64,000 nt of DNA from Synechococcus sp. WH 8016 (lineage in GTDB: Bacteria; Cyanobacteriota; Cyanobacteriia; PCC-6307; Cyanobiaceae). A program made the position numbers and the translations under genes. The notes under the pieces are model-generated. The model ran no database searches. It had not been told where the DNA came from and worked only from the letters and a program-made list of their open reading frames with translations. Positions 1 to 7,058 of the stretch are shown piece after piece. Positions within the stretch are counted from its first letter, which is position 1. Every line of letters begins with the position of its first letter. The stretch lies in contig NZ_AGIK01000001.1 in the NCBI RefSeq assembly GCF_000230675.1, forward strand, positions 1-64,000. Direction: 5' to 3'.

Positions 1-3000
1 CAACCCAAGCAGGTGCAGTTGCTGGTGGGGCTGCTTCTACCAGTAACGGTGTCACCGTTACCTCTAAATACGACGCCGGAACTCAAACAACGAGTTATGG
101 CGTTGAGGTTGCAGCGGGTAATGGTCTGACAATTAATAATGGTGGTCAACTAGAAGTGAACACTGGTGGCAATAATATTATTGTTAATCCCAACGGTTCG
201 CTAAGTGCTCTCAAGACCACTGTTTCAGCGGTTGATCAAAAAGTCACAGTGACTGCAACCGGTGGTTTTGACGAGGCTAATAATTACACCACAAATTATG
301 AAGTTGGGATAAACATCGCCGACCGTTCATACAACGCTCTCAAATGTACTGGTGAGGGAGACGGTGCTGAATGTTATGGCAACGATGCTGAGGCGACAGG
401 AGCTTCATCAACCGCGATTGGATCAGGTGCGAAATCTACAGCTGTTGGAGCTACGTCATTGGGTAATGCATCCTCTGCATCGTCTACGAATGCAACTGCA
501 ATTGGTCGTAGTGCTGATGCTTCTGGGGATGAGGCAACAGCTGTGGGCTACAAAGCCATTGCCAATGCAGAAGAAAGTTCTGCCTTTGGTACGGGATCCA
601 TCGCTTCTGGCAAAGAGTCAACAGCGGTTGGCTACGAAGCGATTGCATCTGCAGAAGATAGTTCTGCTTTTGGTAAGGACGCGAAGGCTTCTGGTAGGGA
701 GTCAACCGCTTTTGGCTATAAATCTGATTCTGGTCAACTGCGCTCTACTGCGATTGGAGCTGAATCCAAAACGACCCGAGCGAATCAGCTCATGCTTGGT
801 TCTGCTTCTACTCAAGTTACGCTTGCCAATCTTTTTGGCACTGGTAGTGCCATTGTCACTGCCAATGGCGATGGAACACTTTCTAGAAAAGAGGTTGGAG
901 ATAACACCCTTGAATCTCTTACCTGCGAAGGCAATGGAGACAACGCTGTTTGTTATGGTCCGGCTGCAAATGCAACGGGAATGAATACCACAGCATTGGG
1001 TGCGTATTCCACTGCAGCGGGAGCAACGAATGATCTTGATTTAGGTGCAACGTCTGTTGGTGCTGGTGCTTTTACTAACACATTTAATGCCGTTGCTTTA
1101 GGACGCAATGCGCGCGCAACTGCTGCTTCTGCATCAGCCTTTGGTGCTTTCTCAGATGCATCTGGTGTGCAATCGATTTCCATTGGTCGTGGCAGTTCTG
1201 CAACTCAAACCAAAGCACTAGCGATTGGTGATAGTGCAATAGCCTCCGGTGTCTCGTCGATTGCGATTGGTGATTCCAGTATCGCCAATGCAGAAAATGC
1301 TCTTGCCCTTGGTGTGGGTTCAAATGCATCCTATGCCGATTCCACGGCTATTGGTGCGGGCGCCCAAACCACCGCAGTCGATCGGATCACGATTGGAACA
1401 GGAACTTCAAGCATCCAGACGCCAAGCCTTAAAACTCAGATTCCTAGCCAGGTAGGAGTGATCGTGACCCAACCTGATGGTGTGCTGAAGGTCGCCACCT
1501 TCGCAGAAGCGGACCTACCCAACAGCTATTGCGTGGGCGCTGGCAACGGAGCAACTTGTTATGGCCAATTATCGGATGCAACAGGCTCTGGCACCACCGC
1601 CATTGGTGCTGGCAGTCAGGCCAATAGCGGTGCAGGATCAGATCAAGTTGTTGCAGCAACTGCCTTAGGTACTTTTGCTAAAGCCACTGGAGCAGGATCC
1701 ACGTCTCTTGGTGTTCTGGCCAATGCATCGGGTGTAGGTTCTATTTCCTCCGGCATGAATTCATCAGCTACAGGTCGTGGTGCTGTGGCCTATGGCTTTG
1801 GAGCGAATGCCACATCAGAAAACACCATGGCCATTGGCGGTTTCTCTACCGCCAATGGCGATCAATCTGTAGCCATTGGATCTGGTGCTTTGGCCAATGG
1901 TCGCCGGGCTTTCGCTTTTGGTTCGGGAGCGCAGGCGCTTGGATTTAATACCGATCCGATTGCAGGTGGAACGAATTCGTTGTCTGATGGCACTTCCACA
2001 TCGGCCTATGGCGGCGAGTCCAAAGCGATTGGGACGAATGCCACGGCAATTGGTGCTTATTCAACGGCGAATGGCGTCAATGCCATAGCGATTGGATCGG
2101 ATTCCGTCGCCAAAGGAAATCAAGTAATAGCTGTTGGTGCTGGATCATCAGCAGTGTTTGCTGGATCAACAGCTCTTGGTGCTGGTGCAACAACTACAAG
2201 AACCAATCAAGTGGTCATAGGTACCTCAGCGGATGAGGTGACGATTCCTGGATTGAGTGGATCAGGAACGGCGCTGGTGGCAGCAAACGATGATGGAACA
2301 CTCAAGCGTTCATCGGTCTCGATGGGGCAAGTGGAAACAGCAGTGAAAACTACGATTCCAAAACTTGAAAAAGCAGCCCGCGGTTTAGGTCGTGCTGCGG
2401 AGTCAGCCGGTGCTGTTGGCGCTGCGCTGTCTGGATTGCCCGAGGTGTCGCTGCTACCAGATGAACCAGCCCGTTGTGGTTTTGCCGGGGGTGGTTTCGG
2501 CTCGCAGTATTCAGTTGCCGGTGGTTGTGCCCTACGGATCAAGGATCGCTTCCATCTCAATGGAGCGATTGCGTATACGCCATCGGTTGATTACGAGTAT
2601 GGCTCTACGTCATCCTTCGCAGGTCGTATCGGCTTCTCCTTCCCGTTGGGCAAGATTGATCGCTCCGACAAGGTGGCAAAAGAGAGCCTGTACGGCCAGC
2701 AAATTGCAGCCTTGCAATCTGAGGTGAAGGAACTGCGCAGTGCAGAGCCCAGCTCTGACTCCAGTGCAGGGATCTCCGTTTCTGACCCTCAAGTGTCTGC
2801 TTACCTCGGTGAAGTGTCTGGAGACATCAGCCGTTTGGAGGGTGAAGTGCAGTCTCGCGATCAACAAATTGACTCTCTCACAAGGAGATTGGAGGAGTTG
2901 ATGGAAAACCAGCGCACGAATGCTGGGTCGGATGCAGCTGCATCCGAGGCAACTCAGAATCTGATCGAGATTCTTAAAGCTCAGATCGAGGAACTCACGG

Positions 3001-3140
3001 CCCGTGATTCTTCGAATCGAGATGAGATTGAAAATCTCAAGTCTCAATTAGAAGCTCGTGATCAAAAGGTCAATAAGTTGCAGCGACAATTCAATGCCAT
3101 CATGCAGAAGCTTGGCTTGCAGAGCTCTGACAAGCAATAG
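1..3140 (+). CDS. Trimeric autotransporter-like adhesin (YadA/Hep_Hag head, YadA anchor, C-terminal coiled coil), 5' partial
   Basis: The frame is open to the left edge (first full codon at 3), so the N-terminus is missing. The protein is built from degenerate 14-16 residue head repeats of the STAIG/AxG type seen in YadA and Hia-like trimeric adhesins. These fall into three large modules beginning near 340, 920 and 1525. Each starts with a cysteine pair of form C-x(7-8)-CYG and ends with a VTxxNGDGTL-like strand segment. A YadA-type membrane anchor follows (about 2377-2655: small-residue helix GRAAESAG, then four amphipathic strands ending IGFSFPLG). About 155 more residues of heptad coiled coil come after it, which is unusual because the anchor normally ends the protein. 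It probably forms a trimer in the outer membrane and binds surfaces or particles. The small secreted protein and chitinase downstream fit a particle-attachment role. The family is clear; the ligand is unknown. Confidence 0.85.
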   Translation, partial: TQAGAVAGGAASTSNGVTVTSKYDAGTQTTSYGVEVAAGNGLTINNGGQLEVNTGGNNIIVNPNGSLSALKTTVSAVDQKVTVTATGGFDEANNYTTNYEVGINIADRSYNALKCTGEGDGAECYGNDAEATGASSTAIGSGAKSTAVGATSLGNASSASSTNATAIGRSADASGDEATAVGYKAIANAEESSAFGTGSIASGKESTAVGYEAIASAEDSSAFGKDAKASGRESTAFGYKSDSGQLRSTAIGAESKTTRANQLMLGSASTQVTLANLFGTGSAIVTANGDGTLSRKEVGDNTLESLTCEGNGDNAVCYGPAANATGMNTTALGAYSTAAGATNDLDLGATSVGAGAFTNTFNAVALGRNARATAASASAFGAFSDASGVQSISIGRGSSATQTKALAIGDSAIASGVSSIAIGDSSIANAENALALGVGSNASYADSTAIGAGAQTTAVDRITIGTGTSSIQTPSLKTQIPSQVGVIVTQPDGVLKVATFAEADLPNSYCVGAGNGATCYGQLSDATGSGTTAIGAGSQANSGAGSDQVVAATALGTFAKATGAGSTSLGVLANASGVGSISSGMNSSATGRGAVAYGFGANATSENTMAIGGFSTANGDQSVAIGSGALANGRRAFAFGSGAQALGFNTDPIAGGTNSLSDGTSTSAYGGESKAIGTNATAIGAYSTANGVNAIAIGSDSVAKGNQVIAVGAGSSAVFAGSTALGAGATTTRTNQVVIGTSADEVTIPGLSGSGTALVAANDDGTLKRSSVSMGQVETAVKTTIPKLEKAARGLGRAAESAGAVGAALSGLPEVSLLPDEPARCGFAGGGFGSQYSVAGGCALRIKDRFHLNGAIAYTPSVDYEYGSTSSFAGRIGFSFPLGKIDRSDKVAKESLYGQQIAALQSEVKELRSAEPSSDSSAGISVSDPQVSAYLGEVSGDISRLEGEVQSRDQQIDSLTRRLEELMENQRTNAGSDAAASEATQNLIEILKAQIEELTARDSSNRDEIENLKSQLEARDQKVNKLQRQFNAIMQKLGLQSSDKQ

Positions 3141-3235: not shown

Positions 3236-3568
3236 ATGCGTTCTTCGTTTCTTTTCGTTGCTGCTCTTGGTTTGGCCTTGATTCCCCAAGTCGGATGGGC
3301 GCAATCTGCCCAGAAGCAACCAACGGACGCTCAGCTGTCTCGGAGTTTTCGCGACTCCTTCTTGAAGGGTTGTAAGTCAGGCAAAACTCCCAACGTCTCC
3401 AACCAAAATGCCTACTGCACCTGTATGGCTAATGGTTATCAAGCTCGGTATGACGGAAAAACGCTCACAGCCATCTCTCAAGTGGCGGGTTCGATCGGTC
3501 AAAATGGCCCTGCATTGGTCAATCTGATGATGCAGCCTGAAGGCAAGCGCTGTGTCGCCGGTTCGTAG
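3236..3568 (+). CDS. Small secreted cysteine-containing protein
   Basis: A 110-residue protein with a clear Sec signal peptide (MRSS, hydrophobic core, cut after VGWA-Q). The ATG at 3236 is preferred over the TTG two codons earlier. The mature part has four cysteines: one near residue 45, a CTC pair about 16 residues later, and one near the C-terminus, enough for two disulfides. No family is recognised. The spacing resembles the 81-residue secreted protein encoded at 19018-19263 (also C, CxC, C), so the two may be distant relatives. It lies 95 bases after the adhesin stop and before the chitinase, on the same strand. Confidence 0.75.
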   Translation: MRSSFLFVAALGLALIPQVGWAQSAQKQPTDAQLSRSFRDSFLKGCKSGKTPNVSNQNAYCTCMANGYQARYDGKTLTAISQVAGSIGQNGPALVNLMMQPEGKRCVAGS

Positions 3569-3956
3569 GCGCTTCAATCGCAGCGTTGACTGCTTTTCCA
3601 GGCTTGGCTCGTCAGCAATGGCGAGCTTTTTGATTGTTTGGTGTCTTTCTCAGATGCAGTTGGTCATAGTCGCTATGCGGTTGGGTCATGGTTAGGGGGT
3701 TTGGATCTGTAAACGTGGTTTTGGAGTTCAAAAGCTGCGTTTCTGAATTGCTTTTCCTTCTTTGCTTGAAGGAAGATTCATTGATTCTCGGTTTCCTAGA
3801 GGGAAACTGATTCTTTGTTGTCTGCTTTTATTTTGAGGCTGCATTGATGCCGGCTTTGTCTTGAGCTGGTGATTGTTTTGCTTCCTTAAATATTGGTTCT
3901 GGCATGATTCGAAATCTGCATTTCATGGCTCTTCTCTTTCTGTTCTTGAGGTCTGA
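3569..3956 (+). other. Intergenic region, no gene seen
   Basis: 388 bases between the small secreted protein and the chitinase. It holds a terminator-like hairpin at 3607-3631 and T-rich sequence. A GAGG sequence at about 3946-3949 is a good ribosome-binding site for the chitinase ATG at 3957. No ORF with coding character was found on either strand. Confidence 0.5.
3607..3631 (+). terminator. Putative Rho-independent terminator
   Basis: A GCTCG/CGAGC stem with a 10-base loop is followed directly by five T residues. It lies 40 bases after the stop of the small secreted protein. The stem is only 5 bp, so the call is moderate. Confidence 0.45.
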
Positions 3957-6900
3957 ATGATGACTGATTCCTTTATTGGTGGCGTGACCTATCAAGCCAA
4001 CCCTGCAGGATCTGATATCACCGATTTCAATCCAACAAAAGATCGTTTGGATTTTGGAGAGATATCTGTTCATGGCTTAATTCTTGGTGCCTTACCTGAT
4101 GGCACGGCGGGGATTGTGAATCCCTGGGGAGATCAGGTGCAAGCCCTTCAGGGGTTGAGTTGGAACGATCTCAGCCTGGATAACCTTGGTGTTGTTGGCA
4201 ATGAACATCTTCGTCAAGACATTGGCGCGGTGCTGTCTTGGGAGCAAGGCATCGGTTCCCGTGAACCGGGGACTGTGTACGTGCGCTCCCATCAATTTGG
4301 TGTTCAAGAGGTGATTAATGGCTTTGATCCTCAAACCCAAAAGCTGAACTTTCTCTACACCGGTACACGCGAACGACTCTCTGTGGTCGATACGGATCAG
4401 GGGCTATTGATTCAGTTTGAGCCCACGAATCAAAGTGTTCTGTTAACAGGCGTTCAGCGCAGTGATTTGATCGGCGCCAATCTCGAGTTTCATCACGATC
4501 AGGTGATGGAGGACAACCTCGAGGTTCCCTTTGGCTTCACGGCCGAAGAGGTGTCCCTAGTGAGCCGGGCTGGTCTCCTCACGCCTCAAGCTCCCAGTGG
4601 TGCCTCCACCGATGGCGAGCAGGTGCGGGCTGGGCTGATGGTGAATCCTGACTCCACCGTGATAGCGATGGACGCGTCTCAGTCCATGACTGACCACTCC
4701 ATGCACAACCATCCGATGCCATCGAGCTCGGGCGAACTGCAGGCTTCGGTTGCTGGCAATCTCTATTCCGGGGGGATGGGTGGAACCCTCACGCTCTCGA
4801 ACGCATCGAATGTTGCACTCAAGGATTGGTCGTTCAGTTTTTTGACCAATCAACCCGATTTTGAGAGTTGGTCGGCTGAATCCTCAGTGAACGATCTCGG
4901 TGGTGGTGTCTATCAGGTGTTGATTACGCCTCCCGCCTGGGGCCTTGAGATTCCAGCTGGTGGGTCTGTTGATCTGTCTTTCAACGCCGGAAGCATTGGC
5001 CTGGCGGATTCGGGTGCACTCACCAATGCAATGTTTTTTGTTGCTGCGTCTGGGGCCGATGTTGTGGCTCCAGAACAAGCAGCGTCCATTGCTGAGCCAC
5101 TGCCCATTGCTGAGCCACTGCCCATTGCTGAGCAACTGCCCATTGTTGAAGGATCGCCAGTCGTTGAGCCATCGCCAGTTTCTGAGCCATCGCCGCTGAT
5201 GGCAGATTCGCAGGGACTCTCTGTATCGGCCACGATCACCGGTGGTTGGTCTGGCGTCTTTGCTGGCGAGATCACCGTGACCAATCTGGGCAATGGTTCT
5301 GCCGGCACCGACTGGAGTGTTGCCCTTGTCATGGATGCACCGCTGACATCGGTCAGCAACTTTGATGTGCAGTCTGAGCTGCGCAGTGATGGACGCTACG
5401 ACGTCTTGCTCTCTCCTAAATCATGGGCTGCTCCCTTAGATCCAGGCGATTCACAGTCGTCTTATTACCAAGCGGCTGGTGAGGCCACAAACCCTGCTGA
5501 GGTGTTTGATTTTGTTGATGTTGATGTTGATGTTGATGTTGCAGATCCTGCAGAGACTGCAGATGTTTCAGATGGCTCAACTGTGTCGTCGGAGCAGATC
5601 GATTCAGCGCTGGATGTAGTGATGGATTCAGTGATGGAACCCACTGCCTTCAACGAGTCTGTGGATTCGTTGGATCTGCAAGCTCCGAATGGGGGTGGTG
5701 ACAAGCGCATCGTCACCTATTTCGAGGAGTGGGGTGTGTATGAGCGCGATATCAATCTGTCCGATGTGAATGGGCAAGCGATGACCCATCTCAATTACAG
5801 CTTTTTTGATGTGAAGGCGGATGGCTCTGTTCAGCTGTTTGATTCCTATGCAGCGCAAGAGAAGCGGTTTGAGGCAGCGGATCAAGTGAGCCGTACGTTT
5901 AGCCAAGCGGAGTATGCAGCGGTTGATCCTGCTCTGATCGCTGCTTACAACTCCGATCGCTACACGATCAGTGAATCGGCTGATTCGGTCACGGTCACCA
6001 GTGTTCCCGTTGGTTGGAATGATGCGGGTCCCCAGGATGCAGGCAATTTCGAGCAGCTTCGTCGTTTCAAGGAGCTCAACCCCAATGTTGAGCTTGGGTT
6101 TGCCTTAGGTGGATGGACGCTCTCCGATGAGTTCAGCACAGCGTTTGCAACCCAAAGCGGTCGCGATCGCTTCACCAGTGATGTGGTGGATATTTTTAGG
6201 AACAACGATTTCTTCAGTGTTGTTGATTTTGATTGGGAATACCCCGGTGGTGGTGGGGATCCCGGTAATGCATCGAGTCCTAACGATGGGGCAAACTTTG
6301 CCTTAGTGCTTGAACAGTTGCGCGCTGAGCTTGATGCGCTTGAATCGGAGACAGGTGAAAACTATGAGGTTTCTATTGCTACAGCTGGTGGCTCAGAAAA
6401 GCTTGCCAATCTCAATCTTGCTGGTATCGATCCTTACGTTGATTTTTATAATGTGATGACCTACGACTTCCACGGTGGTTGGGAGAATCAAACGGGGCAT
6501 CAGGCAGCGATGACGGGTGATGCCAACAATTACGACGTCACAACGGCTGTGTCTGTTTTCGAAGATGCTGGCGTGGAGCTCAGCAAGGTGGTTTTGGGGG
6601 CTCCGGCCTATACCCGGGCTTGGGGTGGGGTCGAGGATGGCGGCAGCTTTGGTTATCAACAGTCAGGGATGGGTGCAGAGGCTGAAGGATCGCTTGAAGC
6701 CGGGGTTTATGACTACAAAGACATCGTGACGGATGTGATCACGGGGCAGACAGATCTCTACTGGGATGACAACAGCAAAGCGGCCTTTGCCTATAACGGT
6801 GATGAATGGAGTTCCATTGAAACCACCGCCACAATCGCTGGAAAAGCGGCTTACGTTCATGCGAAAGATCTGGGTGGAATGATGTTCTGGGCCCTGAGCA

Positions 6901-7058
6901 ATGATGCTGAAGGTGATCTCAGTTTGGTGGAGGCTGCTGATGACATTCTGCGTCAGGGTGCCTCCTATGCAGATGCGGTTGATAAGGCTCCAGAGTTTGA
7001 TTATGTTTTGGGCGGAAATGGTGAATTTAGTATCAGTGATTTTACGGCATTAGCTTGA
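3957..7058 (+). CDS. Multidomain chitinase: N-terminal cyanobacterial domain, two CBM2-like domains, GH18
   Basis: 1033 residues, predicted to hydrolyse chitin beta-1,4 bonds outside the cell. Residues 1-185 form an acidic domain without a signal peptide. Two CBM2-like beta-sandwich domains lie at about 261-366 and 419-511, rich in W and in the GxGxxGTxxxxN style of carbohydrate binders. Linkers are Pro/Glu-rich (AEPLPI repeats) and a DV repeat. GH18 occupies about 581-1000: strand LGFALGGWTLS near 712, the catalytic core VVDFDWEYP near 755 (DxDxE kept, but the first Asp of DxxDxDxE is Ser), MTYDFHGGWE near 835, and FWALSNDAEG near 980. A short acidic tail follows. Lack of a Sec signal suggests a type I-like or other non-classical route (inference). 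Chitin use by some marine picocyanobacteria is established. RBS GAGG precedes the start. Confidence 0.9.
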   Translation: MMTDSFIGGVTYQANPAGSDITDFNPTKDRLDFGEISVHGLILGALPDGTAGIVNPWGDQVQALQGLSWNDLSLDNLGVVGNEHLRQDIGAVLSWEQGIGSREPGTVYVRSHQFGVQEVINGFDPQTQKLNFLYTGTRERLSVVDTDQGLLIQFEPTNQSVLLTGVQRSDLIGANLEFHHDQVMEDNLEVPFGFTAEEVSLVSRAGLLTPQAPSGASTDGEQVRAGLMVNPDSTVIAMDASQSMTDHSMHNHPMPSSSGELQASVAGNLYSGGMGGTLTLSNASNVALKDWSFSFLTNQPDFESWSAESSVNDLGGGVYQVLITPPAWGLEIPAGGSVDLSFNAGSIGLADSGALTNAMFFVAASGADVVAPEQAASIAEPLPIAEPLPIAEQLPIVEGSPVVEPSPVSEPSPLMADSQGLSVSATITGGWSGVFAGEITVTNLGNGSAGTDWSVALVMDAPLTSVSNFDVQSELRSDGRYDVLLSPKSWAAPLDPGDSQSSYYQAAGEATNPAEVFDFVDVDVDVDVADPAETADVSDGSTVSSEQIDSALDVVMDSVMEPTAFNESVDSLDLQAPNGGGDKRIVTYFEEWGVYERDINLSDVNGQAMTHLNYSFFDVKADGSVQLFDSYAAQEKRFEAADQVSRTFSQAEYAAVDPALIAAYNSDRYTISESADSVTVTSVPVGWNDAGPQDAGNFEQLRRFKELNPNVELGFALGGWTLSDEFSTAFATQSGRDRFTSDVVDIFRNNDFFSVVDFDWEYPGGGGDPGNASSPNDGANFALVLEQLRAELDALESETGENYEVSIATAGGSEKLANLNLAGIDPYVDFYNVMTYDFHGGWENQTGHQAAMTGDANNYDVTTAVSVFEDAGVELSKVVLGAPAYTRAWGGVEDGGSFGYQQSGMGAEAEGSLEAGVYDYKDIVTDVITGQTDLYWDDNSKAAFAYNGDEWSSIETTATIAGKAAYVHAKDLGGMMFWALSNDAEGDLSLVEAADDILRQGASYADAVDKAPEFDYVLGGNGEFSISDFTALA
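5088..5141 (+). repeat. Three 18-bp tandem repeats in the chitinase linker
   Basis: Three consecutive copies of an 18-base unit (first two identical, third with one change) encode the hexapeptide IAEPLP. They sit in the linker between the two CBM2-like domains. Such in-frame repeats can change copy number by slippage and so alter linker length. Confidence 0.9.
5514..5540 (+). repeat. GTTGAT hexamer repeat in the chitinase linker
   Basis: Four and a half perfect GTTGAT units encode a Val-Asp repeat in the linker ahead of the GH18 domain. Changes in copy number would keep the frame. Confidence 0.9.

What the first reader, a model, noticed from the sequence alone, without database searches (positions are those of the whole stretch)
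1..3140. YadA-type anchor followed by a long C-terminal coiled coil
In known trimeric autotransporters the four-strand anchor ends the protein. Here about 155 residues of heptad coiled coil follow the anchor strand IGFSFPLG (about 2655-3140). The extension would reach into the periplasm and could tether the trimer to peptidoglycan or stabilise it.
Basis: partly seen in the sequence, partly recalled or inferred. Interest (0 to 1): 0.65.

Follow-up and report, generated by a model that had tools for sequence, protein, structure and literature searches.

The report
Cyanobacterial adhesin with periplasmic coiled-coil foot
A giant three-chain surface adhesin of a marine Synechococcus-type cyanobacterium carries a conserved rod-like tail after its membrane anchor, a layout already known in other phyla, and is encoded next to an undescribed small secreted protein that accompanies such adhesins across cyanobacteria and is probably a dedicated helper.

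Summary
One uninterrupted frame (3-3140) carries YadA head repeats, a YadA_anchor (2457-2642, above Pfam's cut-off) and a 162-residue tail, about 105 residues of it coiled coil. The premise is wrong: trimeric autotransporter adhesins (TAAs) with coiled coil, SLH or OmpA domains after the anchor are published for Negativicutes, Fusobacteria and Synergistetes. I found no report of them in cyanobacteria. Nearly all TAAs found in the Synechococcus/Cyanobium/Prochlorococcus family have tails (39-165 aa); the filamentous cyanobacteria examined lack them. Tails are under purifying selection, and 50 of 56 contain the R-h-x-x-h-E trimerisation motif (shuffled mean 1.9); the window's own copy lacks it. 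No wall-binding domain was found, so the peptidoglycan tether is unsupported; a trimerising, extraction-resisting periplasmic foot fits best. The more novel result is next door: a 110-aa secreted four-cysteine protein (3236-3568), absent from Pfam and NCBIfam, lies within 1.5 kb of a YadA anchor at 18 of 21 sites in 400 family genomes (0.03 expected), and beside one in Anabaena, Nostoc, Chrysosporum, Dulcicalothrix and Pseudanabaena. It is a candidate TAA accessory factor, comparable to SadB or TpgA in genetic linkage or role, with no detected relationship to them.

The parts
3..3140 (+). Trimeric autotransporter adhesin gene, 3' half (5' half very probably at the end of contig C8)
   Evidence: single open frame of 1045 codons; C8 frame and shared 206-bp repeat
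489..2147 (+). YadA head repeats (left-handed beta-roll passenger)
   Evidence: PF05658, 143.5 bits, 15 stretches
2322..2429 (+). Helix that would run through the barrel pore
   Evidence: AlphaFold2 helix at model residues 15-50, moderate confidence; role inferred from YadA topology
2457..2651 (+). YadA-type four-strand membrane anchor, ending in GRIGFSFPLG
   Evidence: PF03895 at 2457-2642, 34-40 bits; strands in the model
2652..2786 (+). Linker between anchor and coil, with one low-confidence helix (2673-2735)
   Evidence: no coiled-coil signal; pLDDT mostly under 60
2787..3110 (+). C-terminal coiled coil in two blocks (2787-2918, 2934-3110), inferred to be periplasmic and trimeric
   Evidence: COILS-type score, helices with pLDDT about 80 in the middle; aligned class A relatives
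3236..3568 (+). Small secreted four-cysteine protein (110 aa, signal-peptide-like start 3236-3301), candidate TAA accessory factor
   Evidence: linkage to YadA anchors at 18 of 21 places in 400 family genomes and at 10 of 10 loci in an independent search; no Pfam or NCBIfam family
3606..3627 (+). Terminator-like hairpin followed by a T run; first one on this strand after the small gene
   Evidence: consensus scan; none found on this strand between the two genes; not evidence of function by itself

Best explanation
This is a type Vc (trimeric autotransporter) adhesin whose C-terminus continues from the 12-strand barrel into the periplasm as a parallel trimeric coiled coil. SHOWN: the order anchor, linker, coil in one frame; its conservation through one family of cyanobacteria; purifying selection; enrichment of a trimer-specifying motif in the family. 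INFERRED: the coil lies in the periplasm, zips the three C-termini together so that the barrel assembles in register, and then stays as a folded polar foot that resists pulling the anchor out of the membrane. INFERRED: the linked secreted four-cysteine protein acts on the same adhesin in the periplasm, during export or as part of the anchor. The foot is not itself a recognisable wall-binding module.
For: Anchor and coil in one frame. R-h-x-x-h-E in 50 of 56 tails against a mean of 1.9 and a maximum of 8 in pattern-preserving shuffles, and in all three tail classes; the same motif stabilises the periplasmic trimeric coil of FapF (PMC6173795). Tail dN/dS 0.15-0.19 in three pairs. Simulations of AtaA with TpgA indicate that a periplasmic mass alone, without wall coupling, raises the extraction force (PMC13082670). 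Linkage of the small protein to TAAs.
Against: No oligomer was modelled: only single-chain prediction was possible, with a low pTM of 0.29. The window's own tail lacks an exact R-h-x-x-h-E (AQIEELTAR where relatives read QRIEELEAE). Tails are related by descent, so the motif count is not 50 independent events. The tail varies fourfold in length and evolves two to three times faster than the anchor. Class D members and filamentous cyanobacteria do without it.
Confidence: 0.5

Rival explanations
1. The tail is an outer-membrane-to-peptidoglycan tether, binding the wall directly or through the small linked protein.
For: Outer-membrane barrels with trimeric periplasmic coils are tethers in OmpM and SlpA (PMC10628300, PMC9388160), and SLH or OmpA domains follow the anchor in some TAAs (PMC7549365). 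About 108 helical residues would span roughly 16 nm (own arithmetic, 0.15 nm per residue).
Against: No wall-binding domain in tail or small protein; C-terminal residues not conserved and many tails short; the small protein also accompanies tail-less TAAs.
Confidence: 0.17
2. The tail is mainly a docking platform: it recruits the small four-cysteine protein or the BAM machinery during export, and its coil form is incidental.
For: 14 of 16 class A sequences have the small gene next to them; cyanobacterial BAM mostly lacks accessory lipoproteins (PMC6604945); the RDQQI stretch is conserved in class A.
Against: The small protein is also linked to tail-less TAAs, and class B and C tails have no small gene beside them.
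Confidence: 0.2
3. The tail is a neutral extension that came with one ancestral adhesin and has no selected role.
For: It evolves faster than the anchor, may have arisen once, and its length varies fourfold.
Against: Purifying selection, presence in nearly all TAAs of the family and retention of a trimer motif in three tail classes.
Confidence: 0.07

Closest known systems
C-terminally extended TAAs of Veillonella and other Negativicutes, Fusobacteria and Synergistetes (PMC7549365, PMC5491611)
   Same: YadA anchor followed by a coiled coil after the last strand; function of the coil unknown there too
   Different: Different phyla; many of those carry SLH or OmpA domains. The cyanobacterial tails have none, and many have a linked small secreted protein that those papers do not describe
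CbpF of Fusobacterium nucleatum (PDB 9gh4/9gh5, PMC12012533)
   Same: Only solved-structure sequence convincingly matching this anchor; barrel predicted to end at residue 431 of 479, so it has a short tail
   Different: Tail not resolved in the structure; short; the match covers only the anchor
OmpM / SlpA outer-membrane tethers (PMC10628300, PMC9388160)
   Same: Outer-membrane barrel trimer with a periplasmic trimeric coiled coil
   Different: Their coil is N-terminal and ends in an SLH domain that binds the wall; here it is C-terminal with no SLH
SadB with SadA (PMC3953254) and TpgA with AtaA (PMC6604945, PMC13082670)
   Same: Dedicated periplasmic helpers of one TAA; SadB, like the small protein here, is encoded in a conserved cassette with its TAA
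   Different: [quoted passage not shown] the cyanobacterial protein is a small four-cysteine protein, predicted all-helical, with neither
FapF amyloid transporter (PMC6173795)
   Same: 12-strand barrel protein with a periplasmic trimeric coiled coil that depends on R-h-x-x-h-E
   Different: Coil is N-terminal; each chain forms its own barrel; an unrelated secretion system

Membership tests
Trimeric autotransporter adhesin (type Vc) | YadA-type anchor | tested here: met
   PF03895 above its cut-off at 2457-2642
Trimeric autotransporter adhesin (type Vc) | YadA-type passenger repeats | tested here: met
   PF05658, 15 stretches, 143.5 bits
Trimeric autotransporter adhesin (type Vc) | signal peptide | tested here: inconclusive
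   signal-peptide-like start on contig C8, joined to the window only by inference; no signal-peptide predictor was run
Trimeric autotransporter adhesin (type Vc) | homotrimer forming a 12-strand barrel | not testable with these tools
   single-chain prediction only
C-terminally extended TAA (Veillonella type) | coiled coil or other domain after the anchor | tested here: met
   162-residue tail with coiled coil
C-terminally extended TAA (Veillonella type) | SLH or OmpA domain (present in some members, not all) | tested here: not met
   none in Pfam at E up to 10 for the protein (best 25 families shown) or up to 0.01 for the tail alone
OmpM / SlpA outer-membrane tether | SLH domain at the end of the coil | tested here: not met
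   no SLH match in the tail
OmpM / SlpA outer-membrane tether | binding to peptidoglycan | not testable with these tools
   needs a sacculus assay
SadB family (applied to the small protein) | lipoprotein signal | tested here: not met
   read by eye: no cysteine at the inferred signal-peptide cleavage site; the mature start is QSAQ
SadB family (applied to the small protein) | gene next to a TAA gene | tested here: met
   but downstream, where sadB is upstream of sadA (PMC3953254)
TpgA family (applied to the small protein) | peptidoglycan-binding (OmpA-like) domain | tested here: not met
   no such Pfam match in any of 11 members

The most novel reading that the evidence does not exclude
Cyanobacteria have their own trimeric-autotransporter assembly cassette: the adhesin, a dedicated secreted four-cysteine helper that belongs to no family in Pfam or NCBIfam, and, with tail-less adhesins, a secreted TPR protein; in the Synechococcus/Prochlorococcus lineage a built-in C-terminal trimeric coiled coil took over part of that role.
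Probability: 0.4. Interest if true: 0.65.

Novelty: new variant of a known kind. Interest (0 to 1): 0.45.

Why it matters
Type Vc secretion was long thought to need only the general export and BAM machinery; the few dedicated helpers I found described (SadB, TpgA) are from Proteobacteria. A small protein family tied to these adhesins from Pseudanabaena to marine Synechococcus, together with a tail that in most relatives carries a trimer-specifying motif, gives a directly testable case of how trimer assembly and anchoring are solved in a phylum whose BAM complex mostly lacks accessory lipoproteins.

Tried and rejected
Frameshift or read-through artefact: rejected, since the same order is open in many independent genomes. 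Peptidoglycan-binding domain hidden in the tail or the small protein: none in Pfam; NCBIfam and PHROGs gave only weak or coiled-coil-type matches. Lpp-like covalent wall linkage through a C-terminal lysine: rejected, termini vary. Fold search with the small protein: no convincing match (best Foldseek E 3.6, best VIA Z 4.6); with the anchor-tail model only generic helical hairpins came back, so neither says anything about function. Phage or plasmid origin of the small gene: no match in either collection. Small protein as a partner of the tail specifically: not favoured, because it also accompanies tail-less TAAs in Anabaena, Nostoc and others. TAAs of Negativicutes and Fusobacteria were not resurveyed here; their tails are taken from papers.

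Full report
WHAT IS THERE. The window begins inside a gene: 3-3140 is one open frame of 1045 codons that runs off the start of contig C1. Pfam finds 15 YadA_head stretches and one YadA_anchor (PF03895, 34-40 bits against a cut-off of 22.7) at 2457-2642. After the last anchor strand, GRIGFSFPLG (ending at 2651), 162 codons follow. The first 45 or so are a linker with one low-confidence helix; the rest is predicted coiled coil in two helices. The 5' half is very probably the 1048-codon frame that starts with a signal-peptide-like stretch and is open to the end of contig C8 (60,088 bases): both contig ends carry YadA heads and share a 206-bp repeat at 88% identity, which would explain why the assembly broke there. 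Open frames of less fragmented class A relatives reach 2448-4809 codons.

IS IT KNOWN? The premise that the anchor ends the protein in known trimeric autotransporter adhesins (TAAs) is not correct. All TAAs of Veillonella parvula SKV38 have a coiled coil or an SLH domain after the anchor, and similar extensions are reported in other Negativicutes, Fusobacteria and Synergistetes, with OmpA domains in Streptobacillus (PMC7549365; PMC5491611). CbpF of Fusobacterium, the only solved-structure sequence convincingly matching this anchor, has a barrel predicted to end at residue 431 of 479 (PMC12012533). My searches turned up no paper that describes such tails in cyanobacteria, but most subscription journals are not in that library.

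DISTRIBUTION OF THE TAIL. In 400 genomes of the window's family (it holds named Synechococcus and Cyanobium; small genomes in it are taken to be Prochlorococcus-like), 50 have a YadA anchor. Reading the C-termini gives four classes. A: last strand F-P-L/I, tails of 64-165 aa, the window's class (16 sequences). B: F-K-L-G-like, 39-117 aa, typically with a variant of LLARLERLE (37). C: G-F-G, 140-164 aa (4). D: no tail, last strand ending in an aromatic residue (such as GRLGAFWQF), as in canonical TAAs. The filamentous cyanobacteria examined (Anabaena, Nostoc, Dulcicalothrix, Chrysosporum, Pseudanabaena) are class D. A maximum-likelihood tree of the anchors puts A, B and C together (support 92/89) with D outside, so one gain of the tail is the simplest reading, though columns are few. 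In most tailed proteins the terminal aromatic residue of the last strand is replaced by L/I/F-G.

WHAT THE TAIL LOOKS LIKE. Fifty of 56 tails contain R-h-x-x-h-E, against a mean of 1.9 (maximum 8) in 500 shuffles that keep the hydrophobic pattern; it appears in all three tail classes. Tails are related, so this is not 50 independent events. The motif is the published trimerisation motif, and breaking it destabilises the periplasmic trimeric coil of FapF (PMC6173795). The window's own tail has a decayed version (AQIEELTAR where relatives read QRIEELEAE), which weakens the case for this copy. Tail dN/dS is 0.15-0.19 in three pairs, one of them near saturation: two to three times the anchor's, but still constrained. 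No wall-binding domain is detectable, the last residues are not conserved, and length varies fourfold. A trimerising periplasmic foot that also resists extraction therefore fits better than a wall tether. Resistance through a periplasmic mass alone has support from simulations of AtaA with TpgA (PMC13082670). None of the mechanism is shown experimentally here.

THE NEIGHBOUR. At 3236-3568, 96 bp after the adhesin's stop and before the first terminator-like site on that strand (3606-3627), lies a 110-aa protein with a signal-peptide-like start and a C-x(14)-C-x-C...C pattern. It has no Pfam or NCBIfam family. In the window's genus, matches occur in 5 of 31 genomes, and each of the six lies within 1.5 kb of a YadA anchor. 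With a profile (A1), 400 family genomes give 21 places, of which 18 lie within 1.5 kb of a YadA anchor; 0.03 would be expected by chance. Eighteen of the 50 genomes with an anchor have it, and 2 of the 350 without (Fisher p 4e-16, ignoring relatedness). The exceptions are a diverged copy (G565), one 0.4 kb from a contig end (G584) and one 14 kb from an anchor (G372). Fourteen of 16 class A sequences have the small gene directly downstream; none was found beside classes B and C. A separate search of all species-representative genomes with the small protein as query, that is, blind to the adhesin, returned ten loci (five Synechococcus/Cyanobium-type, and Anabaena sp. 4-3, Chrysosporum bergii, Dulcicalothrix desertica, Nostoc sp. 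FACHB-152, Pseudanabaena cinerea), and all ten have a YadA anchor frame directly upstream; six of the ten coincide with genomes already in the samples. In the phylum sample every strong match (over 100 bits) is beside a TAA or, in G372, 14 kb from one; the rest are weak (20-33 bits) and look like another kind of small CxC protein, with no anchor found in their 3-kb loci. AlphaFold2 predicts four helices (pLDDT 83); no solved structure resembles it convincingly.

A THIRD GENE. In the tail-less cassettes a TPR-protein gene with a signal-peptide-like start sits beside the small gene in Anabaena, Nostoc, Dulcicalothrix, Chrysosporum and three Synechococcus-type genomes (about 27-33% identity between the two groups), not in Pseudanabaena; no relative of it was found around the tailed adhesins (7 of 8 against 0 of 13). 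This suggests that tail and TPR protein are alternatives, but with perhaps a single evolutionary event it does not show it.

VERDICT. The tail is real, conserved and apparently unreported in cyanobacteria, but of a known kind. The linked small protein is the better lead: a candidate accessory factor for type Vc secretion in a phylum whose BAM complex mostly lacks accessory lipoproteins (PMC6604945), comparable to SadB (PMC3953254) and TpgA in linkage or role, with no detected relationship in sequence or domains.

Noticed in passing
window 3957-7058 (+): Next gene downstream encodes a 1033-aa protein with a GH18 (chitinase-type) domain and CBM_2 domains, unusual company for a picocyanobacterial adhesin.
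   Followed up: no
L002 557-1860 (G000:C3, around the anchor at 138225-138416): The genome's second TAA is split: a signal-peptide-bearing frame runs into a 21-bp tandem repeat (8.7 copies) in one frame, while the anchor lies in another. Pseudogene, slippage or assembly error.
   Followed up: partly
window 2475-2537 and aligned anchors: Two conserved cysteines (RCG...GC) in the first strands of the anchor in Synechococcus-type and filamentous TAAs, absent from the anchors of some other cyanobacterial families (L048, L053, L058); a possible disulfide.
   Followed up: no
L155-L158, L011, L015, L128: A TPR-protein gene with a signal-peptide-like start is conserved beside the small four-cysteine gene and tail-less TAAs in filamentous cyanobacteria and some Synechococcus-type genomes.
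   Followed up: partly
L148 (G622:C68): A decayed class A TAA with broken frames still sits next to a small-protein gene that itself has in-frame stops, as if the two were decaying together.
   Followed up: partly
L161-L169: A weakly similar family of small CxC proteins in other cyanobacteria (20-33 bits), with no YadA anchor in their short loci; possibly the wider superfamily of the small protein.
   Followed up: no
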